From Candidatus Zixiibacteriota bacterium (GTDB lineage Bacteria; Zixibacteria; MSB-5A5; GN15; PGXB01), in assembly GCA_900498245.1 (NCBI GenBank), contig LS998015.1, positions 96,430 through 132,378 on the forward strand: a stretch of DNA of 35,949 nt, in the 5' to 3' direction. Both the position numbers and the translations under genes were made by a program. This document shows positions 1,441 to 34,697 of the stretch, in pieces. Within the stretch, counting starts at the first letter, position 1. Each line of letters starts with the position of its first letter. Under the pieces are notes generated by a model. The model did not search any database and had not been told where the DNA came from. It worked only from the letters and a program-made list of their open reading frames with translations.

Positions 1441-2949
1441 ATGACATTTCAGAATTTTCTCGAGGAATTTCGGGGTCTGTCCAGAATAATTTATTCCGAA
1501 GTATTGTGGAAACTTACTGACACTGAAATGAGAGTCGTGAGCAATTGCCGCCTGCTCATTAGTAAATTAGTGCAATATGATAGCAAATTTTACCAATTGG
1601 ATATCAAATGCGATGAAATTAAAAATATTTTGAATTGGTTGTTTATTGATGAAGGCGACTTTTCGCAATGGCCCGATTTGTTTGAAATAAAACTAGATCA
1701 CCCACGGCCGGATGAAACTCTTGATATATTATTCAATAATATTGACAATGAAATACTTCATCAAATTTGGCTGCGGAGCGCGGCTCCATCGGAACTTTAT
1801 GAAAGATTTAAGACTCTATCAGATGAAATATCAAGCCGGGAGAAAGTGCTCGAGGATGCTATATTAGCCGATGTGAATCAAGTATGTTGTTCGGATGACA
1901 CTATTTTTTTGATAGCAAAGGGCTGGAATTCGTGGACCCCCAGCTTTTTTAATGTTATAGGCGGCTGCTATGCTGTGATCCTGCCAAAAATCTGGGGTGG
2001 TTCTATGGGTGAACGGCGAAAGGCGGTTGTAATAGATCCGGGAATTAAATTTCTTGAAATTATTAGAAACGAATATGGTGTGACTGCCTCCGATATTTAC
2101 GCCGTGTTTGTAAGCCATTTCCATTCCGATCATATGGGAGGGCTTCTGGATTTTTTATCCCTACGAAATGTCTATTATTCCAAGGATCGCCTGGAGGAGA
2201 AATCGGCGAGTCTCTATTTAAGTCCGACATGCTATGATGTTTATTCAAAATTACGCCCGCCAATCAAGCCATACCCTATCAGGGACGGCAGTGAAGTGCG
2301 GGTATTTAGCAAGCAATATCAGCGATATGACAGCAAATACGAAGAAATAATTATTAAGTCCTTCAATACTTATCATGAGGAATTGATGGGTCTGACGAAT
2401 TCATTGGGCTTTATAATAGAAATTGCCATTTATAATCAGGAGATTCCAAACTGGTCAGAAAAAATATATTGGAGAAATTACAAGATTGCCGTAGTCGGTG
2501 ATACGGCATATGACAGGCGTCTTTTTAATCAAATAAAGGATGCGCAAGTTATTATTTTGCATATAGGGTCATTTCAATTGAAAGAAAGCGCATATAAAGG
2601 CAAACATCTATACATCCCCGGCCTGCGCGACCTCTTTCATGAATTTGCTGAATTCTATGAAAAGGCAAGAAAATCCGGTGTTCGGCTTGAACCAAAAGTA
2701 ATAATTATTTCAGAGATTGGGCTTGAGCACGCTGACAAGGATATAATTGTTGATAATTCCCCGCCATACACAGAGGACTATTTGGAGACCAATTTATCGA
2801 ATAACAAGTATTTGGGCATGATTTCGCAATTATTGGAGTTGGAATCCCGGGGCTGGGGGGTTGTATTCTTGGCGGACGAACGAATGAAGTTAATAATTGG
2901 GTCAGAAATACGGGTCAGGACCGGCGACAATGAAGTTTATTCGACCTAA
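1441..2949 (+). CDS. Metallo-beta-lactamase-fold hydrolase with N-terminal extension
   Basis: This is a 502-residue soluble protein. The first ~150 residues are helical and unrecognised, and an MBL domain fills the rest. The metal-binding set is complete by eye: motif HxHxDH (H226, H228, D230, H231, in SHFHSDHMGG), a motif-III histidine (H312 in NTYHEE), the GDT aspartate (D354) and a last histidine (H430 in EIGLEH). VVIDPG near residue 198 is the usual strand before motif I. This pattern fits hydrolytic MBL enzymes of the RNase Z/lactonase/phosphodiesterase type; the substrate cannot be read from the sequence. No signal peptide is seen. The Shine-Dalgarno GAAGGG precedes the ATG. The next gene starts 33 bp downstream and encodes a distant paralogue of the MBL domain with lost ligands, so the two products probably work together. 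The fold is near certain, the function unknown. Confidence 0.85.
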   Translation: MTFQNFLEEFRGLSRIIYSEVLWKLTDTEMRVVSNCRLLISKLVQYDSKFYQLDIKCDEIKNILNWLFIDEGDFSQWPDLFEIKLDHPRPDETLDILFNNIDNEILHQIWLRSAAPSELYERFKTLSDEISSREKVLEDAILADVNQVCCSDDTIFLIAKGWNSWTPSFFNVIGGCYAVILPKIWGGSMGERRKAVVIDPGIKFLEIIRNEYGVTASDIYAVFVSHFHSDHMGGLLDFLSLRNVYYSKDRLEEKSASLYLSPTCYDVYSKLRPPIKPYPIRDGSEVRVFSKQYQRYDSKYEEIIIKSFNTYHEELMGLTNSLGFIIEIAIYNQEIPNWSEKIYWRNYKIAVVGDTAYDRRLFNQIKDAQVIILHIGSFQLKESAYKGKHLYIPGLRDLFHEFAEFYEKARKSGVRLEPKVIIISEIGLEHADKDIIVDNSPPYTEDYLETNLSNNKYLGMISQLLELESRGWGVVFLADERMKLIIGSEIRVRTGDNEVYST

Positions 2950-2982
2950 CAAAATCCTTCATAGCATTATAGGAAGGCTCAT

Positions 2983-5160
2983 ATGACACTAAATAAGAAG
3001 GGAACCAAATTAACCCCGAAACCGAAATCCGCAGTTCTTAAAGAACTAGTAAAATCCCGAGATGATTTTTGGAATCTATATAATCGGCGCCATTGGGACG
3101 AGGCTCGCAAGCAAGCGGGATATGGGGTTTATTATTGTACTAGGCACGGTGTAACGGATCTTGTCAGCCATTTTATTGCCCTTATCTATTTCCTGGATTA
3201 TGATTATAATAATGCAGAAAAGCTATTGGCTTCGGTCGTCGACAACATGGACAAATCCATTCCTAAGGAGCTTCCCTATTTAAACGCTTATGAAGATTAT
3301 GCCTTAACGCTGCAATTGATGTTTTCTTACAGAAAGGCGGAGTCCGCGTATTATAATTTGCTGCAATTGTATGACAATAGTGGAATCACGCCCAAAATAA
3401 GGACATTTGTAAGAGCCGCCTCTTTATTTGAAGCAATTGAGGATGACTATAAATATTCTGAGATGATGAAAAGAGCAGAAAAGAGCGGATCGGCAAACGT
3501 CCTGTATTTACAAAACTCTCTTGTTAAGAAATGGCGCGAACTCCTTGTCATGAGTCAAGAGTCCGACAAGAGAGATCAATGGCTGACGGATATGGAACAA
3601 ATACTTCAAAAAATAACATCCCTGACGGCGGAGCCGGAAAAAGACGGCACATTAATGAATGACACCGGGGTCATGTGCTACCTAAAAGAGCAGTATTCTG
3701 AGAGTATTCAGTATTTTGATAAAGCTATTCAAATAAACGAATCGATAACTTATCCAACCATGAATAAAGGACTGGCCACATATCGGCAAGGATCTGATTT
3801 GCATTTGGAAAAGTTTGATGAAGCCAAAATGTTATTTGATAAGGCCAGAACTCTATTTCTTAAATCAAACGATATGGCGGGGGCGGAAAATGCAAATTTA
3901 TTTATGAATTTGTGTGAATTGAAGAATAAGGGACTGCAAAAGGCTGAAAAGATTGATGGATGCTTTTTGGAACTCCTGCTAGATTTGGTTGACACCTTTA
4001 ATCATGCGGAAAATTTCATTACCGGAAGACATATTCATAAGAGTAGATTTCAAGAGGGACTATTGAGAGAAACCGATAAAGGGCATCCCAAAAATGCCTT
4101 TTATGTCTTGAGTGGTTTGCATAGCTATGTTCCCACTTTCGGTGTAAAAAGGCTCCATCGTGGCGGGGGTTATTATTTAAGATGGCAAGGTTCCGGGATA
4201 GTAATTGATCCTGGATTTGGCTTTGTAAACAATTTTGCCGAAAGCGGACTTAGCCTTAAGGAAATTGACACAATTATTATCACTTCATCTCTTCTGGATC
4301 ATTCCTGCGAGCTTGAGAGTCTTCTTGCATTATTCACATATATGAGGGAATTACGATATGGCTCCGAGTCTGATAGGTTTATGATGGAGACATTTCTGAA
4401 AGATCGCATTCCTCCGGTAGATAAAAAGGTTCGGCTGATCTTAACTCCAGATGCGTTTGAAAAATATGGAGGCTTCATTAATAAGGCATATCATTCTATC
4501 ATTAAGGAAATAATTGAATTAAGCGATAAACAGGGAGAGTACGAAATTAAAGAATCCCTTCTCTGGAATCGCAGCTGCTCAATAAGACTTAAGCCATTCA
4601 AGGGAGTAATAAATACATATTCAAATATAGATAAGCCATTCGGATTTCTTTTGGAAATGTATCAGGAAGATAATGACAAACCTTTCAGATTAGGATATAC
4701 TTCGGATACACAATGGATTAATGAAATTGAGCGACACTTTGCCAATTGTGACCTATTGGTTGGAAACATCGGCCCCATTGAACCGATAGAATTTAAGTCG
4801 GCAGGTCAGAGAGATACCAAATTGAGCCCCAGCCATCTGGGGTTGTATGGCTGTTTTAGAGTAATGAAATTTGTCAGGCCCAGATTATTTCTGGTGGCGG
4901 AAGTTGGCAGGGAGCTGTACAAATTAAGAGGCAAATTGATGGGCTATTTCAACAGCGAAAAGTATCAAAATGGGGATACAGTCGGCAAAACAAGGGCCTT
5001 ATCTACAACGATGGGGATGATTATCAACCTTGACGATCTGACAGTGAAGGCAGAAGGACTTGATCAATTCAGTGAATTTGTGAAAGTCATTGAGGAATAT
5101 GATCCGTGCCAGAATAAATACCTTTACAGGTTGAAGAACGGCGCTGCAGGCCATTCATAA
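2983..5160 (+). CDS. TPR protein fused to a ligand-depleted MBL domain
   Basis: This is a 725-residue protein. Residues ~40-330 are helical TPR-like repeats, with a clear one around LMNDTGVMCYLKEQYSESI. Residues ~385-700 form an MBL fold related to the upstream gene. IDPG (D409), the loop TSSLLDHS in place of SHFHSDHM, SDT (D575) in place of GDT, and AEVGREL in place of SEIGLEH align well. The first two motif-I histidines are replaced (S435, L437), D439 and H440 remain, the motif-III histidine is S547 and the final histidine is L645. It therefore probably cannot hold a normal two-metal centre and may be a pseudoenzyme, scaffold or regulator of its neighbour; that role is inference. The Shine-Dalgarno AGGAAGG precedes the ATG, and the 33-bp gap implies one transcript. 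Confidence 0.8.
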   Translation: MTLNKKGTKLTPKPKSAVLKELVKSRDDFWNLYNRRHWDEARKQAGYGVYYCTRHGVTDLVSHFIALIYFLDYDYNNAEKLLASVVDNMDKSIPKELPYLNAYEDYALTLQLMFSYRKAESAYYNLLQLYDNSGITPKIRTFVRAASLFEAIEDDYKYSEMMKRAEKSGSANVLYLQNSLVKKWRELLVMSQESDKRDQWLTDMEQILQKITSLTAEPEKDGTLMNDTGVMCYLKEQYSESIQYFDKAIQINESITYPTMNKGLATYRQGSDLHLEKFDEAKMLFDKARTLFLKSNDMAGAENANLFMNLCELKNKGLQKAEKIDGCFLELLLDLVDTFNHAENFITGRHIHKSRFQEGLLRETDKGHPKNAFYVLSGLHSYVPTFGVKRLHRGGGYYLRWQGSGIVIDPGFGFVNNFAESGLSLKEIDTIIITSSLLDHSCELESLLALFTYMRELRYGSESDRFMMETFLKDRIPPVDKKVRLILTPDAFEKYGGFINKAYHSIIKEIIELSDKQGEYEIKESLLWNRSCSIRLKPFKGVINTYSNIDKPFGFLLEMYQEDNDKPFRLGYTSDTQWINEIERHFANCDLLVGNIGPIEPIEFKSAGQRDTKLSPSHLGLYGCFRVMKFVRPRLFLVAEVGRELYKLRGKLMGYFNSEKYQNGDTVGKTRALSTTMGMIINLDDLTVKAEGLDQFSEFVKVIEEYDPCQNKYLYRLKNGAAGHS

Positions 5161-5426: not shown

Positions 5427-5481
5427 TTAAAAAAATCCTGAAGTCAGACTGCCGTATTCTGTCAGGGGTGATGCTTATAAT
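5427..5481 (+). promoter_or_regulatory. CTGnC/CTGTCA promoter element, copy A
   Basis: CTGCC (5449-5453) and CTGTCA (5459-5464) lie 10 bp apart. A further CTG at 5438 continues the spacing at 11 bp. The box TATAAT (5476-5481) begins 11 nt after CTGTCA. No standard -35 hexamer is present at the right distance, so an activator bound to the repeats may replace it. The 44 bp at 5427-5470 differ from 7611-7654 at only one base. The predicted leader to the radical SAM start at 5608 is about 120 nt. Confidence 0.6.
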
Positions 5482-5607
5482 TAAATAATAGAAATTGGGT
5501 GAATTATCAAATTCGTCAAAGGCTACTTAGCATAACCGGATAAAGAATGAGCTCAAAAAGGCTACATGGCAAATGAAAGTTACAGTTAAGAAATGCTTTG
5601 GAGAAGT

Positions 5608-7032
5608 ATGTCAGCCCCAACTGAAGACAACTCTGATCTGAAAATCACTGAATACAAGGCCTCCCGATATAATCAATTGTTTCAACGAGACAAAGGCAAT
5701 TGGCTCGCATTCAATGCTCTTACGTGCGGCTTGGCGGAAATGAATTCAGATAACCATAGGCTATTTGCCATGTTTTTAGAAAAGACAGGATTAGGCGAAT
5801 TTGATATTGAAAAGGACTTCATTCTTCAATTACAGGCCGGAGGATTTATCGTCCCCAGGGAAATGGACGAAATTGAAGCTATTAGAGCTGGTCATTATCA
5901 GGCAAGGTTTGGTAGAAAGGACTTTTGCCTTACAATCATTCCCACTTTGGCCTGTAATTTTTCTTGCGATTATTGCTATGAACCGCGGTCCGTTCCAGTT
6001 CGTGATGTGCAATCACCTTTTATTATGCCCGAAGAAGTGTGTAATAATATTGGGGCATTGTGCGAAAAGAGAATAGCAGAGAATACTCACTTTCATGTAA
6101 CCTGGTATGGGGGAGAACCTCTTCTGGCAATGGACACCATTGAAAAATTAACTAATAAATTTAAATCCATGTGCAGTTCAAAAGGTTCAAGTTATTTTGC
6201 GTCAGTCATCACAAATGGATATTTACTCACTAAGGAATGCCTTAATATTCTTATATCTTCCGGGGTAGTATTTATACAGATAACAGTCGATGGACCTGAG
6301 CAAATTCACAATGAGCGAAGGCACTTAAAATCAGGAGCTCCCACATATCAGACAATTTTGCAGAACTTGGAAAACATAGAAGATGATTCTCCCTTGCTAG
6401 TTGCCGTCAGAATCAATATTGATAAGAGAAATTCCGAAGACATTTACTTATTATTGGAGGAGCTTAGGACGCGCGGACTCAATCATTGCAGAAATATAGT
6501 CATCTATTTGGGGCAAGTTATCCATAATTTGGAATCCTGTTCAAATGTCGCTTTTGAGTGTATGGCAGCCAATGAATTTGCGAGCTTTTCAGCGGAAATT
6601 TACAAAGAAATGATCAAATTGGGTTTTAAAATTCCCATTTATCCTCATGTAATGATGGGGTCATGCGCTGCGGTTGGGACAGGTGGAGCCGTAATAGAGC
6701 CGGACGGAACCATTCATAATTGTTGGAATGCGGTGGGAAATAAAAGCATGAGCGTCGGCCAACTTACAAGGAATGGAATAGAGTATAACCCTAATAGCGT
6801 CAAGTGGCTCGGCTGGAATGCATTTAGGGATGAGTGTCTAAATTGCAATATTCTGCCAATCTGTATGGGGGGATGTCCTTATAGGACGATCAAAAGGGAT
6901 GCTATCAGCGATGCAATGAATAATACATGTTCGATTTGGAAATACAATATGAAATCGCTTTTGGAAATCGCCAGGATGGCGCGTGAGAAGGGACTATTGA
7001 TTGTTCCTTGGGAGAAGATTAAGAAGCGGTAA
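5608..7032 (+). CDS. Radical SAM/SPASM peptide maturase
   Basis: This is a 474-residue radical SAM enzyme. The cluster motif CNFSCDYC (C116, C120, C123; CX3CX2C) binds the 4Fe-4S cluster that cleaves S-adenosylmethionine, and YGGEPL follows. The C-terminus has a full SPASM pattern: CX13GX4C, then CX2CX5CX3C (CLNCNILPICMGGC), then a last Cys in NTCSIW, which would hold two auxiliary clusters. The ~105 residues before the core resemble the peptide-recognition leader region of SPASM maturases. Such enzymes modify peptides or proteins, for example by thioether links or as anaerobic sulfatase activators; no sulfatase is nearby. I chose the ATG at 5608, which has GGAG 5 nt upstream, over the in-frame ATG at 5593, which lacks a good site. 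A 63-codon ORF follows at 7126 and is the likely substrate candidate. Confidence 0.9.
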   Translation: MSAPTEDNSDLKITEYKASRYNQLFQRDKGNWLAFNALTCGLAEMNSDNHRLFAMFLEKTGLGEFDIEKDFILQLQAGGFIVPREMDEIEAIRAGHYQARFGRKDFCLTIIPTLACNFSCDYCYEPRSVPVRDVQSPFIMPEEVCNNIGALCEKRIAENTHFHVTWYGGEPLLAMDTIEKLTNKFKSMCSSKGSSYFASVITNGYLLTKECLNILISSGVVFIQITVDGPEQIHNERRHLKSGAPTYQTILQNLENIEDDSPLLVAVRINIDKRNSEDIYLLLEELRTRGLNHCRNIVIYLGQVIHNLESCSNVAFECMAANEFASFSAEIYKEMIKLGFKIPIYPHVMMGSCAAVGTGGAVIEPDGTIHNCWNAVGNKSMSVGQLTRNGIEYNPNSVKWLGWNAFRDECLNCNILPICMGGCPYRTIKRDAISDAMNNTCSIWKYNMKSLLEIARMAREKGLLIVPWEKIKKR

Positions 7033-7083
7033 TTAGGGTTGCCTTCACAGGAATTTAAATGAAATATTTTAAGAGATTTTAAA

Positions 7084-7118
7084 CCTTTCTTTTACGCCAA
7101 AATGCTCTAGAAAGGAGG
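7084..7118 (+). promoter_or_regulatory. Stem partly covering the ribosome site of the 63-aa ORF
   Basis: CCTTTCT (7084-7090) can pair with AGAAAGG (7109-7115), which includes the first half of the Shine-Dalgarno AAAGGAGG at 7111-7118. The loop is 18 nt. It could temper translation of the small ORF, but a 7-bp stem in AT-rich DNA may be chance. Confidence 0.25.
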
Positions 7119-7125
7119 TATAACT

Positions 7126-7317
7126 ATGACTTGGATAGTTGAGCCAAATGCTATCGTCGCGGGATATCAGAGCGTATCGTGTTGGGTCCCATTTATATTG
7201 GTGTGCGATGGGACGCTAGCTTCATATGTTGGGCTTGCTGTAGCCGCAATAAAACACTGCGTTGATTCCGGCACACTTACTATTGACTTCGTTTTCCATA
7301 TGGGCAAGGAGAGTTGA
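7126..7317 (+). CDS. Small peptide, candidate radical SAM substrate
   Basis: This is a 63-residue ORF with a near-perfect Shine-Dalgarno (AAAGGAGG) 7 nt before ATG, 93 bp after the radical SAM/SPASM gene and followed by an intrinsic terminator. The product is neutral to acidic and hydrophobic in the middle. It has three cysteines (C19, C27, C45) and many small residues (Ala, Gly, Ser, Val), but no cleavable signal peptide pattern. I do not recognise the family. Its position, ribosome site and terminator argue that it is a real gene. That it is a RiPP precursor modified at Cys or neighbouring residues is inference from gene order alone; no clear double-glycine leader boundary is seen. A short protein unrelated to the maturase remains possible. 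Confidence 0.5.
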   Translation: MTWIVEPNAIVAGYQSVSCWVPFILVCDGTLASYVGLAVAAIKHCVDSGTLTIDFVFHMGKES

Positions 7318-7427
7318 ATTGTCGCTTATTTCAGGCATTCCAAATTGCCGGTTTTTAGGGTTGAATTTGCAGCGGCAATAAATATTTACTATCGCGCCCC
7401 CGTCATTTTGAACATGGATACATGTTT

Positions 7428-7463
7428 GAAGGGCAGGATTTTAGCCTGCCCTTCGTATTTTTT
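7428..7463 (+). terminator. Intrinsic terminator after the radical SAM locus
   Basis: GAAGGGCAGG (7428-7437) pairs perfectly with CCTGCCCTTC (7445-7454) around a 7-nt loop, followed by GTATTTTTT. It closes the 5608-7317 transcript. The same GGGCAGG/CCTGCCC stem recurs at 14042. The surrounding 7318-7610 has no supported gene. Confidence 0.85.
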
Positions 7464-7610: not shown

Positions 7611-7665
7611 TTAAAAAAATCCTGAAGTCAGACTGCCGCATTCTGTCAGGGGTGGATCTTATATT
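7611..7665 (+). promoter_or_regulatory. CTGnC/CTGTCA promoter element, copy B
   Basis: This copy is nearly identical to copy A. CTGCC (7633-7637) and CTGTCA (7643-7648) lie 10 bp apart, and TATATT (7660-7665) starts 11 nt after CTGTCA. The upstream A-tract and CCTG are also the same. The gene at 7739 begins 73 bp after the -10 box. Confidence 0.6.
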
Positions 7666-7738
7666 TTTTAAGGCATAAAGGGCCATTGGAGCCTTATTGC
7701 ATATTTGCAAATAAGTGAGTTGATAAAAAAGGATTAAT

Positions 7739-8437
7739 ATGACCATTTCCCAAAAATGCCTATTTCCTATTTTCAGCCTGCTACTAACAATGATTATTTG
7801 GAATTGCGGCCGAGTTCCCAAGGAAGTGGTTGAATTATCTTATGCCTCTGGGCAAGACTTGGCAGCAATAAATTCCTCTTATGTTAATGCAATTCATACT
7901 TTATATGACCAATTGCGTCAACAGCGTCTTGATTACTTGGATAATCAATGGACGCCTGCCTTCGTGGCCTTATGGGTCAGGAAAGGCAAATTAATTGAAA
8001 TTGCCAAAGGAGAGTTAATCTGGCTGGAAGATGAAGCCGAATTTGCCGCACCGCAGCCTGATCACGGTAGTAAGGAGCTTTTGGAAAGCGTCCAGAAATG
8101 GGGTGAAGAAGCAATTTACGAGATTGAGGCGAAGAGAGACTCTCTTTTAAACCCTTTGGATCAGGAAGAAAAGCAGCTCCTTAGTGAAATTAATCAGGCT
8201 TTTGAACAACTTATTCGCGCCAATGCCACAATCACTGCCCATTTGAATAGCCTCAGAAAAGTCCAGGAGGTTCAGGATAGTGCTCTAGCAGCCCTGAATA
8301 TTAGTGACTTAAGGGACAAAATAAATCTTGCTTTGGAATCAGCCTCATCACGAGCATCAGAAGCACTTGTAAAGATCAGAGAAGCTGATGAAAAAGCCAT
8401 AAACATTAAGGGGAAATTGAAATCGGTTATTAAATAA
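7739..8437 (+). CDS. Possible lipoprotein, coiled-coil, unknown function
   Basis: This is a 232-residue protein. Residues 1-22 form a hydrophobic N-terminal segment ending IIWNC (C23), a poor but possible lipobox, so it is either a lipoprotein or a secreted or anchored protein. The remainder is strongly helical and charged, with heptad-like stretches from ~115 to 230 rich in E, K, A and L, suggesting an elongated periplasmic coiled coil. I recognise no family. The site AAGGA stands 6 nt before ATG. It is the first gene behind copy B of the repeated promoter element, and the next gene starts 9 bp after its stop, so the two are co-transcribed. It might bridge the envelope or be a partner of the membrane protein encoded downstream; this is inference only. 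Confidence 0.75.
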   Translation: MTISQKCLFPIFSLLLTMIIWNCGRVPKEVVELSYASGQDLAAINSSYVNAIHTLYDQLRQQRLDYLDNQWTPAFVALWVRKGKLIEIAKGELIWLEDEAEFAAPQPDHGSKELLESVQKWGEEAIYEIEAKRDSLLNPLDQEEKQLLSEINQAFEQLIRANATITAHLNSLRKVQEVQDSALAALNISDLRDKINLALESASSRASEALVKIREADEKAINIKGKLKSVIK

Positions 8438-8446
8438 AGGATCGGT

Positions 8447-8737
8447 ATGGTTAGGAAGAAGCGCAGTAGCATGGGGAAATTGGCAGACGAGACTGCCAGA
8501 CAGGTTGATCAAATGCTGTCCGATGATGAATTGGAATTAATCAAGAATACGTCAATTAATTGGGAGTCACTTAAACCGAAAATCACTAATTCCGAGACTT
8601 ATACCAGTTTGATAAATGCTGTTCAGCAGTCCACTAAGAAGAATGAAGATCTAGCACAATTGAGGGCGCGAATTGAGAATTTAGGGAAAGATGCTCTAAA
8701 GGCTGCAAGAACACTAATAACTAATATAAAGCCGTAG
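8447..8737 (+). CDS. Small helical hypothetical protein
   Basis: This is a 96-residue soluble protein with a basic N-terminus (VRKKRSS) and otherwise amphipathic helices, with no cysteine and no signal peptide. The last ~35 residues (KKNEDLAQLRARIENLG and onward) look like a short coiled coil. AAAGGA is 7-12 nt upstream of the ATG, and the start is 9 bp after the preceding stop, which supports translation as the second gene of the operon. No family was recognised. Like its neighbour it is built of coiled-coil helices, so a direct interaction is plausible but not shown. Confidence 0.65.
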   Translation: MVRKKRSSMGKLADETARQVDQMLSDDELELIKNTSINWESLKPKITNSETYTSLINAVQQSTKKNEDLAQLRARIENLGKDALKAARTLITNIKP

Positions 8738-14041: not shown

Positions 14042-14077
14042 AAAGGGCAGGTTAAAATCCTGCCCTTTCCTATTTTT
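14042..14077 (+). terminator. Intrinsic terminator of the secreted-protein gene
   Basis: AAAGGGCAGG (14042-14051) pairs with CCTGCCCTTT (14059-14068) around a 7-nt loop, followed by CCTATTTTT. It starts 12 bp after the stop codon. Its stem matches the one at 7428. Confidence 0.85.
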
Positions 14078-14418: not shown

Positions 14419-17400
14419 ATGATTCGGCCATATGGGTCCTCTGGGATAATTGAAAGCTCTAATTCAAAGCCAAAGTCTGGCATTTATGATTTTAGAAAGC
14501 TTTTATCGAATAATCAACTCACTCAATCTTGGTTCGCCATTAATACCGAACAAAAGCAGCCATGTTTTGTCAAGGCATATTATCAGCACAAGGATAACAG
14601 TATAAATGGAAATCAAATATTAGAGCAATCATTTGAACTCCAGAAATTTATAAAAACATCGCAAATTCATACCTCAAGCAAACTAACTTCTGATAATGGT
14701 TTCACTCTTATTGAGTATCCTTACCTTGATCCGAAGGAATGGCGTGCTCTCAGACCTGAATTATTCCTAAGTCAATTCCCCGACGTTCTTAGTGAAATCT
14801 TCAAAATTATTGACTATTTGCATCTTAATGAGCTAGTTCATTGTGACCTCAAATTAGAAAATTTTCTGGTCAGTTGGGCCGGACCGACTATCAAAGTCAA
14901 GCTCATAGATTTGGATTTTCTGACAAAATCGCATTCCCGTCCTTCCCACCATATTATTGGCACGCCAGGCAAAATAGCTCCAGAAATATTAGATGATGAA
15001 ATGGTTTTTATAGAATCTGATAATTATTCAATAGGACTGTCATTGGAATCTTATATAAAAAATACTGTAGCAATTACTAATTTAATTTCTACTGATGTCC
15101 GAGATAAATTAACACATCTTATCTGCAGGCTGACTGCCAGTTCACGCTTTCAGAGAAGTGCATTCTTAATTCCTGAATTATATAATTCCGGAATTATCGA
15201 CAAAAAAGCGTTTGATAGAATCCAGAGAGATCTATTTGCCATGAAGTTTGTCTCAGATTATCATAGGCAGATAGACCAATTAAGTGGGAAAAGCGATTTC
15301 ATTAAATATTTTCTCTCTCCTTCAAATGGCGTGTTCGGAATATCTGAGGAATTAGTTGAATTCCTGGATGTAGAAGCCCAAACAGGCTTTTTTTATGCCT
15401 ACAAATTATTCAAAGAGTTGCTGAGATCTTCAGAAATTAATCGCTATGGAAATTTTTGGCATCTCAATATTCCAGATGTCGTCGCATGGAATGCTATTAA
15501 TAGGATAAATAGTTTTACTAAACACGTGGATTTAAGAGGTCTTCTTGGTGGCAGGAAAAAAGTCAGTAACAGTTATGTGACATTTCTGCACCTAAAATAT
15601 GGATTTGCCACAAATGGCATTTCAGAAGAACCTAATAGAGAACAACTGCGGAATCTGGTGCCAAGCACATTAGCCAGAATAGCATTGTCTCTTGGGCGCT
15701 TCAGCGAAGCCGATGGTTTTTATAATACTGCAATTAATGCAATTCCAAATAATTGTCTGGAAAAGTGCCGGTTAATTTATGATTTAAGTCATGTTTATTT
15801 GTTACTCGGCAAAACTGATGATTTTCTAAAGGCTATTCATGAGGGCAAAGCACTGTCTAAAGAATTACGTGCAGAGAAATATTATTTGATCTTCAGAAGG
15901 CAAGAAGCTTGGCATATTGGAGCAACAGGAGATATTATAAAAGCCAATTCAATCTTGTCAGATCTATTGGCAGAGGCTCTTCAAAAACACTGGAAAGACG
16001 AAGCTTCCAAAATTTTGGCATCAAGGGGAGCACTGCTATGGAGAAGTGGTGATTTCAATAATGCTTTGGGTTTATTCAAAAAGTCCTTGAGCTTATCCAA
16101 AAGCCACGGAAATGCACTTGATCAAATTATAAATTATTCCAACCTGGCAGTCTTATATTTTGAATTGGCTGATTATACAAAGTCTATTAAATACGGAAAG
16201 GTGGCTGTCGAACTAGCTTTAAAGACCAACCAACTCACCCGTATTCCTGCGTTGTATATAAATTTGATGTTGGGTTATACTCGAATAGCAGATTATAAAC
16301 AATCAGAATTTTGGCTGAATGGCTATTTGACAGGAAGAACTTTAGGTCTAGATAGGTCGTTCTTCCTAATTTATTATCTATATTATGCCAATTTGCTCTT
16401 TAAGGAAGGACAATTTGTTAGTGCCAAGGAAGCATTTCGTCTGGCCTTATCTATGAGGTCTTCCAATACCGCGGAAAGGAACGTGGGGAAATTATATCAA
16501 AGCGAGGCATTGCTATATTTCCAGGAAGCAAACAAAAATGAATTTAATTGTGCGATTGCAAATGCCCGAAAGATATTCGCAGAATTAGGAGATACGGCGT
16601 CGATTACTGAAGTAAATTTTATTAATTCTCTTTGGGCAATCTACGTTGATAATCAAAATGAAATTGAATATTTGCCTGACTATTTCCAGACATTGATTAA
16701 AGGCAATAACCGATATTATGCCGCGCTTTGTCTGTTTTACATATTGCTTTATGGAAACCCTGCTGCTAAGAGACGCTCAATTTCCGATAGTTCTAAAATT
16801 AATTTTATTAGAAGTGCTACCGATGTTCCCTTATTCAGGGCAGTTAGTGAGCTAATTCAAGGATCCAATGCAAAAATTACTGATATTTCTGATTTATTGC
16901 CATTTATCAAGGATGCATATAGCGCTCTCTATAATTCTGGTGATCAATTTAATGCCCTGTTGGTATGTATGGAGATTGCTGACATTTACAAATCAGTGAA
17001 TAACTATAAACTGGCTAGGAAATTTTATCAACAAGCATATTCATTGGCTCAAGGCATAAAAAATAATGAACTGTTGAATGCCGCAAACAAAAGGCTTCAA
17101 GAAATACCCAAACAGGAATTGAGTCGTAGTCAATTTGTAAACTCTATCCGGGCTGTCTCCAAGATTCTTGATAATATTGAAGATAAGGAAGCCTCAATAC
17201 TAAAATTGGTCAATTATGCGGTAAAAGAGACAGGCGCAGAGCGCGGAGTTCTGCTCTTAAGAGCAGATGAATATTCCAAATTGCAGGTGAAAGCCTATGC
17301 CAATTGTGATGTGAAATGCCTTGATGATATTGCGGAATTTTCCAATTCTATTGCAAATACGGTGGCCACTCAAGAGATCCCCTTATTGATAGACAATGCT

Positions 17401-18594
17401 ATGGAAGACAGTCTTACCAATAAATATAAAAGCATTCTAACCCACAATATTTTGTCTGTGATTTGCGTGCCGATTAAGAGCGATAATGAATTGCAGGGTG
17501 TCCTTTATCTGGATCACCATACAATTCCGGCTCTTTTTGATACAGATGACGTGACTTTTATTCATGCGATGGCCAGCTTTATCTCGATTCTCTGGCAAAC
17601 AGTGTTTAATTACAGCATCAAAAATATGGTCGGAAGGCAATTGGCCGAGGATATGGCCAAACTTGGCAGTTCCAAGACTTTTATTACTCAGAACGAGAAG
17701 ATTCGGAAAATGCTATTAAAGTTGCCAGATATATCCAGAAGCAATGCCAGCGTATTACTAATAGGAGAAAGTGGGACCGGCAAAGAAATTGTTACTCAAA
17801 TGATTCATGATATGAGTCGGCGTGCCAAAGGCCCTCTTGTCAAATTGAATTGTGCTGCGATCCAATCCTCTATGTTTGAAAGTGAGTTATTTGGAGTGGC
17901 AAAGAGGGTTGCTACTGGTGTAGATGAACGGCCTGGAAAATTGGCGGCGGCTGACGGTGGCACTCTGTTCTTTGATGAAATCGGTGATATGCCCCTTGAA
18001 ATGCAAAGCAAGATTTTAAGGGTTATTGAATATCAAAGATTCGAAAAGGTCGGTAGTAATCGTTCTCTTGCAACTGATATTAGATTTATCTATGCCACAA
18101 ATAAGAACCTGACAAAATTAATTCAGCAAGGCAAATTTCGGGAAGACTTGTATTATCGCATCAACACAGTGACCATTAACATTCCCTCATTATCAGAAAG
18201 ATGTGATGATATTCCATTACTCCTTCAGCATTTCCTTGAAATATATTCCCCTGATAAAAATGAAAGGCCTATATTCACCACTTCTGCTTTGAATGCATTA
18301 ATTGCTTATTCTTGGCCAGGTAATGTAAGGGAATTGCGAAATGTTGTTGAGAGGGCCTGTATTTACTATTGTAGAAAAAACGTTGATCTTGGGGACCTAC
18401 CAGCAGAGATTAGAGAATTTATCCCCCCCGGCACTGACAGCATAAAGCATAAGGAAAATATTGAAAAAACCACCATATTAAAAGCTCTGAATGAAAATAA
18501 TTGGATTCAATCCGCTGCTGCGCGCAACCTGCATATTCCTCTCACGACCTTAAGAAGAAAAATCGAAAAATACAAAATCTCAAAATCCATTTAG
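14419..18594 (+). CDS. Ser/Thr kinase-TPR-GAF-AAA+(sigma54-type)-HTH regulator
   Basis: This is a 1391-residue cytoplasmic signalling protein. Residues ~25-270 are a protein kinase-like domain: VK at K52, HCDLKLEN (H141, D143, K145, N148), DLD instead of DFG at 164-166, and a GTPGKIAPEI activation end; no glycine-rich loop is obvious. Residues ~390-900 are TPR repeats, and ~910-1065 a GAF domain. An NtrC-type AAA+ domain follows, with Walker A GESGTGK at 1116-1122 and Walker B FFDEIGDM at 1186-1187. The loop that contacts sigma-54 is RVATGV at 1163-1168 rather than GAFTGA. A Fis-type HTH ends the protein. The layout suggests that a ligand or partner sensed by TPR/GAF controls ATP-driven transcription activation. 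The small exported peptide and the WYL-type regulator downstream are plausible targets. GGGG precedes the start; no terminator was seen after it. Confidence 0.85.
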   Translation: MIRPYGSSGIIESSNSKPKSGIYDFRKLLSNNQLTQSWFAINTEQKQPCFVKAYYQHKDNSINGNQILEQSFELQKFIKTSQIHTSSKLTSDNGFTLIEYPYLDPKEWRALRPELFLSQFPDVLSEIFKIIDYLHLNELVHCDLKLENFLVSWAGPTIKVKLIDLDFLTKSHSRPSHHIIGTPGKIAPEILDDEMVFIESDNYSIGLSLESYIKNTVAITNLISTDVRDKLTHLICRLTASSRFQRSAFLIPELYNSGIIDKKAFDRIQRDLFAMKFVSDYHRQIDQLSGKSDFIKYFLSPSNGVFGISEELVEFLDVEAQTGFFYAYKLFKELLRSSEINRYGNFWHLNIPDVVAWNAINRINSFTKHVDLRGLLGGRKKVSNSYVTFLHLKYGFATNGISEEPNREQLRNLVPSTLARIALSLGRFSEADGFYNTAINAIPNNCLEKCRLIYDLSHVYLLLGKTDDFLKAIHEGKALSKELRAEKYYLIFRRQEAWHIGATGDIIKANSILSDLLAEALQKHWKDEASKILASRGALLWRSGDFNNALGLFKKSLSLSKSHGNALDQIINYSNLAVLYFELADYTKSIKYGKVAVELALKTNQLTRIPALYINLMLGYTRIADYKQSEFWLNGYLTGRTLGLDRSFFLIYYLYYANLLFKEGQFVSAKEAFRLALSMRSSNTAERNVGKLYQSEALLYFQEANKNEFNCAIANARKIFAELGDTASITEVNFINSLWAIYVDNQNEIEYLPDYFQTLIKGNNRYYAALCLFYILLYGNPAAKRRSISDSSKINFIRSATDVPLFRAVSELIQGSNAKITDISDLLPFIKDAYSALYNSGDQFNALLVCMEIADIYKSVNNYKLARKFYQQAYSLAQGIKNNELLNAANKRLQEIPKQELSRSQFVNSIRAVSKILDNIEDKEASILKLVNYAVKETGAERGVLLLRADEYSKLQVKAYANCDVKCLDDIAEFSNSIANTVATQEIPLLIDNAMEDSLTNKYKSILTHNILSVICVPIKSDNELQGVLYLDHHTIPALFDTDDVTFIHAMASFISILWQTVFNYSIKNMVGRQLAEDMAKLGSSKTFITQNEKIRKMLLKLPDISRSNASVLLIGESGTGKEIVTQMIHDMSRRAKGPLVKLNCAAIQSSMFESELFGVAKRVATGVDERPGKLAAADGGTLFFDEIGDMPLEMQSKILRVIEYQRFEKVGSNRSLATDIRFIYATNKNLTKLIQQGKFREDLYYRINTVTINIPSLSERCDDIPLLLQHFLEIYSPDKNERPIFTTSALNALIAYSWPGNVRELRNVVERACIYYCRKNVDLGDLPAEIREFIPPGTDSIKHKENIEKTTILKALNENNWIQSAAARNLHIPLTTLRRKIEKYKISKSI

Positions 18595-20076: not shown

Positions 20077-20115
20077 AGTCAAACTGCCAGATTCTGTCAC
20101 CCCAGAGGTTATATT
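20077..20115 (+). promoter_or_regulatory. CTGnC/CTGTCA promoter element, copy C
   Basis: CTGCC (20084-20088) and CTGTCA (20094-20099) lie 10 bp apart, and the preceding AGTCAAA matches the other copies. TATATT (20110-20115) begins 10 nt after CTGTCA. The secreted EEP-enzyme gene starts 109 bp downstream at 20225. Confidence 0.55.
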
Positions 20116-25298: not shown

Positions 25299-25858
25299 AT
25301 ATGGGGATTCCCTCCTGATGACCCCGCAATGCTGTTTTATTTATCCCAAAACCTAAATCTCCTTCCTATTTATAAACATATTCACAATACCCTCTTCATA
25401 AAGATGATGTTTACCGGTTCCGGTATGGTATGCCGGTTAAGACAGACTGCATTTGTTCATCGGGATGACGTCCTTTATTTCATTTCCTCTTGAATATCTG
25501 CAAGTTACGCAGGATCGAAGAGGTCGGGAATTGCCGCATAATGTATGTTGCACTGACAGATTCTGTCAGTCTGAATATTCTTTGACAGGAGGGGTGCTTA
25601 TATCCGCAACTATGCATTAAGATAATAATCATGCGGTGAACCCGTCTGTTGCACTAATCATTTATTTGGATGCTCCGATATATAATATGGATGCAATCGA
25701 TATTTAATGTCGGATTTATGCTGGTTGAGCAATGCACGATGGTATGGCAATGCAGGAAAGTGACGCCATTTCTTTGGCCTGCATAAGCAGGGGTATTTAA
25801 GACAGGCGCTTTGCTGAATTATAGATTCACATGACGAAATTTAACAGGGGTTAATGTT
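25299..25858. other. Intergenic region upstream of the kinase operon
   Basis: No gene is supported. Besides promoter copy F it contains a small CCTGC-ATAA-GCAGG hairpin at 25778-25791 and two TGTTGCACT direct repeats (about 25545 and 25648). The predicted leader of the kinase operon from copy F is about 245 nt. Confidence 0.4.
25542..25604 (+). promoter_or_regulatory. CTGnC/CTGTCA promoter element, copy F (palindromic)
   Basis: A perfect 9+1+9 palindrome, ACTGACAGA-T-TCTGTCAGT, lies at 25552-25570; CTGACA and CTGTCA within it are 10 bp apart. A second unit follows: TTGACA (25582-25587), then exactly 11 nt, then TATATC (25599-25604), the same spacing as the other copies. The site before the -10 box and the palindrome together could bind two dimers. 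Confidence 0.5.
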
Positions 25859-32450: not shown

Positions 32451-32490
32451 AAATTACGGTGCTCCCCTGACAAAATCTGGCAGTTTGAGT
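32451..32490 (-). promoter_or_regulatory. CTGnC/CTGTCA promoter element, copy E
   Basis: On the minus strand the 15-mer TGCCAGATTTTGTCA occupies 32468-32482, preceded by GACTCAAAC. Exactly 11 nt after TGTCA comes TAATTT (32456-32451), the same spacing as copies A, B and D. The GIY-YIG gene begins 34 bp later. The opposite orientation of this copy relative to the others, together with its correct orientation to its own gene, supports a promoter role. Confidence 0.55.
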
Positions 32491-34657: not shown

Positions 34658-34697
34658 AGTCAGACTGCCAAGATCTGTCAGTGGCATTTTATATAAT
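34658..34697 (+). promoter_or_regulatory. CTGnC/CTGTCA promoter element, copy D
   Basis: AGTCAGACTGCC (34658-34669) is followed by CTGTCA (34675-34680), a 10-bp repeat, and by TATAAT (34692-34697) 11 nt after it. The secreted gene at 34820 starts 122 bp downstream. The upstream AGTCAGACTGCC matches copies A and B exactly. Confidence 0.6.

What the first reader, a model, noticed from the sequence alone, without database searches (positions are those of the whole stretch)
5608..7317. Candidate RiPP locus: radical SAM/SPASM maturase with a 63-residue Cys-containing peptide
The maturase has CX3CX2C and a full SPASM pattern. 93 bp later is a small ORF with AAAGGAGG, three cysteines and an intrinsic terminator right after. 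The order maturase-peptide-terminator is typical of minimal RiPP loci. No known leader family was recognised in the peptide, so it could be a new substrate class. The two MBL proteins upstream belong to a separate transcript but could be partners.
Basis: partly seen in the sequence, partly recalled or inferred. Interest (0 to 1): 0.65.

Follow-up and report, generated by a model that had tools for sequence, protein, structure and literature searches.

The report
Radical-SAM maturase with its peptide substrate
This is a two-gene locus in a probable Zixibacteria genome: an enzyme that cross-links small peptides and, right after it, the small peptide it most likely modifies. The pair belongs to a little-studied branch of a known enzyme family, whose relatives carry two such peptides together with a membrane protease and an exporter.

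Summary
Window 5608-7032 encodes an RRE-radical SAM-SPASM maturase, and 7126-7317 a 63-residue peptide behind AAAGGAGG. The pairing is not chance. Maturase relatives across the phylum are flanked by short Cys peptides with the leader M-x-[YFW]-[LI]-[VI]-x-P: 38 within 1.5 kb of maturases (104 kb) against 1 elsewhere (201 kb). The window peptide (MTWIVEP...) has the Trp form, confined to one maturase clade (support 100/98) in 6 of 132 genomes. In the five where the region is assembled, W-leader peptides directly follow the maturase; none were found elsewhere.

So the RiPP reading is supported. The leader is not unknown, though: it is the signature of the TIGR04463/Clo7bot/CefB group, and a recognised Thiothrix CefA starts MKYLVQP. 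Three relatives carry two peptides plus a CPBP protease, an ABC exporter and a Yip1/YknW-like protein, which suggests an exported bacteriocin-like product. The window lacks these, and its peptide keeps only 3 Cys. The MBL genes are not conserved partners. Best mechanism: the leader binds the RRE, and the SPASM enzyme forms Cys thioether cross-links. The chemistry is inferred, not shown. New variant of a known kind.

The parts
5442..5481 (+). Promoter-like element upstream of the maturase: 24-nt motif AGTCAGACTGCCgtatTCTGTCAG, 10 nt, TATAAT
   Evidence: 12 motif sites genome-wide against 0 for the reversed control; most are followed about 10 nt later by TATAWT; part of the 56-nt repeat 5427-5482
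5608..7032 (+). Radical SAM/SPASM peptide maturase, W-leader clade
   Evidence: PF04055 and SPASM TIGR04085; AF2 model pLDDT 88; CteB Z 26.7 over 393 residues; clade support 100/98
5650..5907 (+). N-terminal RRE-like winged-helix domain (residues about 15-100), expected leader-binding site
   Evidence: strand/helix order in the model and co-alignment with CteB from residue 19 on
5953..5976 (+). CX3CX2C radical SAM cluster motif (C116, C120, C123)
   Evidence: invariant in 40 relatives
6664..6930 (+). SPASM domain, seven cysteines (C353-C441), two auxiliary clusters expected
   Evidence: TIGR04085 54.7 bits over its cut-off of 27; conservation
7111..7118 (+). Ribosome binding site AAAGGAGG of the peptide
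   Evidence: the same GAAAGGAGGT-type site precedes W-leader peptides in G004, G008, G020 and G096
7126..7317 (+). Precursor peptide, 63 aa, leader MTWIVEP, core with C19, C27, C45
   Evidence: profile hit 1.2e-12 with a profile that includes it; leave-one-out E 0.007; core resembles G020 pepB, p = 0.003
7126..7146 (+). Leader signature M-T-W-I-V-E-P
   Evidence: M1, W3 and P7 invariant in 8 W-clade peptides
7427..7463 (+). Intrinsic terminator (11-pair stem, T-run) ending the maturase-peptide unit
7626..7665 (+). Second copy of the promoter-like element, upstream of the lipoprotein ORF at 7739
   Evidence: possible shared regulation, not shown to be part of the RiPP system

Best explanation
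It is a minimal RiPP locus. The maturase binds the short leader (M-T-W-I-V-E-P) of the 63-residue peptide through its N-terminal RRE. It then uses SAM-derived radical chemistry, with SPASM auxiliary clusters, to join core cysteines (C19, C27, C45) to nearby side chains as thioether cross-links of the ranthipeptide/sactipeptide type. In relatives the product is probably exported by a dedicated ABC system and trimmed or tolerated with the help of a CPBP protease, which suggests a secreted bacteriocin-like or signal peptide. In this genome the export genes are not linked. Shown: enzyme family and fold, leader conservation, obligate co-occurrence. Inferred: RRE-leader binding, thioether chemistry, secretion, bioactivity.
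For: NCBIfam top hits are peptide maturases of Cys-rich substrates: TIGR04463 315 bits, Clo7bot 313, CefB 208, PapB 118. The AF2 model matches CteB (5why, Z 26.7, RRE included) and TigE; CteB is also the best sequence match in the PDB, 1.6e-31. The W-clade is one branch, 100/98. W-leader peptides were found in 5 of 132 genomes, each beside a W-clade maturase; the sixth maturase is cut off by a contig end before its downstream region. Leader-motif Cys peptides are enriched at maturases, 38 against 1. The core matches G020 pepB, p = 0.003. Three relatives share maturase-pepA-pepB-CPBP-ABC-Yip1.
Against: The window peptide keeps 3 Cys where W-clade relatives have 5 or more, and its C-terminal half matches none of them. 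No exporter, protease or second peptide is nearby. The maturase sits on a long branch (0.91), so the system may be drifting. No relative closer than 47% was found, so selection on the peptide cannot be measured. No NCBIfam maturase model reaches its equivalog cut-off, so the bond type cannot be transferred from a characterised enzyme.
Confidence: 0.78

Rival explanations
1. Decaying RiPP locus. The maturase is still intact but the peptide has lost its function through loss of cysteines or of reading frame, after loss of pepA and the export genes.
For: Only 3 Cys. Downstream of codon 29 an overlapping frame reads DASFICWACCSRNKTLR, Cys-rich and of the usual total length; chance of such a tail 0.022. 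No export genes. The G020 maturase is itself broken. The same-genus genome G001 lacks the locus.
Against: The in-frame ORF has a strong ribosome binding site, an intact leader and a core match to G020 pepB. A profile of the relatives scores the overlapping-frame version lower than the in-frame one. G004 is also a single-peptide locus without an exporter.
Confidence: 0.25
2. The maturase makes another bond, such as a C-C or ether cyclophane or an epimerisation, and the cysteines are only partly involved.
For: W-clade pepB cores are aromatic-rich (CDYCFYFIYDS), and the window core holds few Cys but several W/F/Y residues.
Against: Best family and fold matches are thioether-forming or Cys-substrate enzymes: CteB, PapB, Clo7bot, CefB. 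Cyclophane families (YhhB, GrrM, FxsB) score far lower. Y-clade substrates are uniformly Cys-rich.
Confidence: 0.2
3. The two MBL-fold proteins upstream (1441-5160) are functional partners of the maturase, for example processing or tailoring enzymes.
For: Same strand and adjacent in this genome.
Against: No MBL homologue at any other maturase locus fetched; about 430 nt gap; a promoter-like element between the units.
Confidence: 0.04
4. The 63-aa ORF is a chance ORF and the real substrate is elsewhere.
For: Small ORFs are common; weak similarity in its C-terminal half.
Against: Leader signature, ribosome binding site, position and core similarity all agree with four independent orthologous loci.
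Confidence: 0.03

Closest known systems
TIGR04463 family radical SAM/SPASM RiPP maturase (rSAM_vs_C_rich)
   Same: Full-length best match, 315 bits over residues 21-463; same domain order; Cys-rich short substrates
   Different: 315 against an equivalog cut-off of 525; separate clade with Trp-type leader; the peptides match no NCBIfam precursor model over its cut-off
Clo7bot maturase/peptide (TIGR04334/TIGR04333)
   Same: 313 bits full length; short peptides with a modifying enzyme; a weak leader-region match of one W-clade peptide to TIGR04333 (11.3 bits)
   Different: Cut-off 600 not met; window peptide longer, with fewer Cys
CefB/CefA (NF038107/NF038108)
   Same: 208 bits; a Thiothrix CefA substrate next to a related maturase begins MKYLVQP, the same leader type
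   Different: No Cys-every-fifth repeat in the window peptide; cut-off 600 not met
CteB/CteA ranthipeptide (thermocellin) system, PDB 5WGG/5WHY
   Same: Same RRE-radical SAM-SPASM fold, Z 26.7 over 393 residues; best PDB sequence match
   Different: 16% identity; the window peptide hits no SCIFF/CteA precursor model
YknWXYZ (SDP protection transporter of Bacillus)
   Same: The ABC and Yip1 proteins in three W-clade relatives resemble this kind of module; the G008 Yip1 protein hits the YknW model; YknWXYZ protects against the SDP peptide toxin (PMC4887032)
   Different: YknW hit 51.9 bits, under its cut-off of 110; no such genes in the window

Membership tests
SPASM-domain RiPP maturases (broad kind) | CX3CX2C radical SAM motif plus 7-Cys SPASM domain | tested here: met
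   PF04055 and TIGR04085 over cut-off; cysteines invariant or at least 90% conserved in 40 relatives
SPASM-domain RiPP maturases (broad kind) | N-terminal RRE that binds the leader | tested here: inconclusive
   RRE-like strands and helices in the model, co-aligned with CteB including its RRE; the domain was not searched alone and binding is untested
SPASM-domain RiPP maturases (broad kind) | adjacent precursor with conserved leader and variable core | tested here: met
TIGR04463 equivalog | score over the curated cut-off (525 bits) | tested here: not met
   315 bits
Clo7bot maturase TIGR04334 | score over the curated cut-off (600 bits) | tested here: not met
   313 bits
CefA/CefB | maturase over cut-off 600 and Cys-every-fifth substrate | tested here: not met
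   208 bits; no NF038108 match for the window peptide, no repeat
PapB ranthipeptide maturase NF047865 | score over cut-off 340; CX3D substrates | tested here: not met
   118 bits; the window peptide has no CX3D or CX3E
Ranthipeptide class | non-alpha-carbon thioether bonds from Cys | not testable with these tools
   needs in vitro or in vivo modification and MS/MS
Bacteriocin-type RiPP cluster | linked export and immunity genes | tested here: not met
   present in relatives G008, G020 and G096, absent from the window

The most novel reading that the evidence does not exclude
The W-leader clade is an undescribed two-peptide RiPP system of Zixibacteria. One maturase modifies two different Cys/aromatic-rich peptides (pepA with a CCS motif, pepB with C-D-[YF]-C followed by an aromatic tail), which are exported by a CPBP-ABC-Yip1 module. 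The window holds a reduced one-peptide version with an unusual low-Cys core and a different cross-linking pattern.
Probability: 0.35. Interest if true: 0.6.

Novelty: new variant of a known kind. Interest (0 to 1): 0.45.

Why it matters
It gives a substrate and a leader signature for a branch of SPASM maturases that NCBIfam places under no precise model, in a phylum for which the searches here found no RiPP literature. The short leader (seven residues, M1/W3/P7 invariant) and the paralogous Tyr-leader system in the same genome make a direct test of leader specificity possible. The two-peptide relatives with an exporter are concrete candidates for new bioactive peptides.

Tried and rejected
Reading-frame shift in the peptide: the overlapping frame after codon 29 is Cys-rich (chance 0.022), but a profile of the relatives does not prefer it and neither tail aligns significantly; left open, not adopted. 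A W-leader ORF at L060 5305-5457 (Thiothrix) looked like a precursor, but it overlaps the real 822-aa CefA substrate in another frame and was discarded. MBL genes as partners: no support. The weak aminopyruvatide ApyA hit of the peptide (16 bits, cut-off 47) is treated as chance. The 56-nt repeat around the locus first looked like private co-regulation or insertion flanks; it is part of a promoter-like motif with 12 sites in the genome, 6 of them in the window. The lipoprotein/96-aa pair downstream occurs elsewhere without the maturase in the stretches fetched. A first genome-contig scan with the single protein found nothing. Literature searches for Clo7bot, TIGR04463 and Zixibacteria RiPPs returned nothing usable. 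PADLOC viperin hits of the maturase (43.9 bits) reflect the shared radical SAM core only.

Full report
What is there. The maturase ORF (5608-7032, 474 aa) and the 63-aa peptide ORF (7126-7317) are as described, with AAAGGAGG at 7111-7118 and a 93-nt gap. The only terminator-like hairpin on this stretch is at 7427-7455, 110 nt after the peptide stop. NCBIfam gives TIGR04463 (315 bits) and Clo7bot TIGR04334 (313 bits) full length, both under their equivalog cut-offs, then CefB, FlmE/OhkG, geopeptide and PapB maturases. The cysteines of CX3CX2C and SPASM are invariant or nearly so in 40 relatives. An AlphaFold2 model (pLDDT 88) matches CteB from residue 19 to 457 (Z 26.7) and TigE (Z 22.7). CteB is also the best PDB sequence match. 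So the enzyme is an RRE-radical SAM-SPASM peptide maturase.

Is the peptide its substrate? In the phylum (132 genomes; probably Zixibacteria, because the named records L061 and L063 fall among its maturases in the tree) the maturase family is common (37 genomes at E <= 1e-80). Next to its members lie short peptides with the leader M-x-[YF]-[LI]-[VI]-[DE]-P and Cys-rich cores, often ending PLYGxxP. In 24 maturase-bearing loci a leader-plus-Cys filter finds 38 peptides within 1.5 kb of a maturase (104 kb) and 1 elsewhere (201 kb). The own-genome paralogue at 1480528-1481847 has MVYLVDPKTVRNFCIVKCGVVYPLYGIRCGDLTI upstream.

The window pair belongs to a distinct branch. Its maturase groups with those of G004 (47%), G008 (46%) and G096, support 100/98; G020 (frame broken) and G048 (contig end) also belong by score. 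The peptides of this branch have Trp in place of Tyr: M[NTK]W[IL][VA]xP, with M1, W3 and P7 invariant in eight peptides. All lie directly after the maturase, most behind the same strong ribosome binding site. A profile of these peptides, searched over all 132 genomes, finds strong hits (4.7e-16 to 1.2e-12) only at these loci. With the window peptide left out, the profile still ranks it first of 399 window ORFs, E = 0.007. Beyond the leader, the window core resembles pepB of G020 (C-x2-PFI-V-C-G), p = 0.003 by shuffling, 1 of 7 comparisons.

Context. G008, G020 and G096, from three taxonomic families, share maturase, pepA, pepB, CPBP protease (PF02517), ABC ATPase and a Yip1-type protein (PF04893 tested in G008, with a sub-cut-off YknW hit). 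An ABC-2 permease lies between ATPase and Yip1 in G008 and G096 and was not called in G020. YknWXYZ protects Bacillus against the SDP peptide toxin (PMC4887032), and a CAAX-type protease is encoded in the angicin bacteriocin region (PMC9298176, abstract only). This makes a secreted, bacteriocin-like product the best guess for those relatives; it is inference. The window and G004 have a single peptide and no exporter nearby.

Mechanism. By analogy with CteB and PapB (PMC8326336; PMC9413430), the leader docks on the RRE and the SPASM enzyme abstracts a hydrogen from an acceptor residue that is then bonded to a Cys sulfur. PapB does this on CX3D/E motifs with loss of 2 Da per bond. The window peptide has no CX3D/E motif, so the acceptors cannot be named. 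Steps shown here: family, fold, leader conservation, co-occurrence. Steps inferred: binding, chemistry, export, activity.

Weak points. The window peptide is longer (63 against 47-51 aa; G004 62) and poorer in Cys than its relatives, and its C-terminal half aligns with none. An overlapping frame after codon 29 is Cys-rich (chance 0.022), but the profile does not prefer it. Decay of the peptide is therefore the main rival. The MBL pair upstream is not a conserved partner.

The leader is a group signature, not a new one. A Thiothrix maturase of the group lies beside an 822-aa protein that starts MKYLVQP and ends in Cys repeats scoring 66.7 bits to CefA (cut-off 30). The system is thus a new variant within the TIGR04463/Clo7bot/CefB group, distinguished by the Trp leader, its clade and, in relatives, the two-peptide exporter operon. 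None of the W-clade peptides scanned matches a curated precursor family over its cut-off.

Regulation. The 56-nt repeat at 5427-5482 and 7611-7666 is part of a promoter-like motif, AGTCAGACTGCCNNNNTCTGTCAG, followed in most copies about 10 nt later by TATAWT. There are 12 sites in the genome against 0 for the reversed control, six of them inside this window. The maturase unit therefore probably has its own promoter and belongs to a small regulon.

Noticed in passing
window 5442-5465, 7626-7649, 20077-20100, 25553-25576 (-), 32467-32490 (-), 34658-34681: 24-nt motif AGTCAGACTGCCNNNNTCTGTCAG (up to 3 mismatches), usually 10 nt before TATAWT: 12 sites in the 3.5-Mb genome, 0 for the reversed control, half of them in this window. 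Looks like a promoter class or operator of a small local regulon.
   Followed up: partly
L014 5568-5885 (own genome, about G000:C1:930567-930884): HesB/IscA-like ORF with an in-frame TGA at 5670 (..FQGAG-TGA-SGPSVG..) and a C-terminal SSCGDCHC, just upstream of the second paralogous maturase and a third radical SAM gene: a candidate selenoprotein.
   Followed up: partly
L061 4495-4587, L063 7451-7546: A third leader type, VKFIE[KT]P with short Cys peptides, next to another maturase clade that includes the own-genome paralogue at 931215.
   Followed up: partly
L060 3467-5935 (Thiothrix): CefA-type Cys repeats are fused to a large protein that keeps the short leader MKYLVQP at its N-terminus: an 822-aa putative RiPP substrate.
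   Followed up: no
L045 150-1544 (G008): Maturase lacks one otherwise conserved SPASM cysteine (CMGG-PY for CMGGCPY), possibly one auxiliary cluster altered.
   Followed up: no
window 1441-2949 and 2983-5160: Tandem MBL-fold proteins (RNase Z-like motifs), the second with N-terminal TPRs; no PADLOC hit and not linked to other maturases.
   Followed up: partly
window 7739-8737: Lipoprotein plus 96-aa protein pair found together in two other genomes of the phylum, with no maturase in the stretches fetched.
   Followed up: partly
window 7429-7453 and 14043-14067: Nearly the same terminator-like hairpin (AAGGGCAGG..CCTGCCCTT) ends two transcription units 6.6 kb apart.
   Followed up: no
window 14419-18594: 1391-aa protein with a kinase-like N-terminus, TPR-like repeats and a sigma-54-type AAA plus HTH C-terminus: an unusual enhancer-binding regulator.
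   Followed up: no
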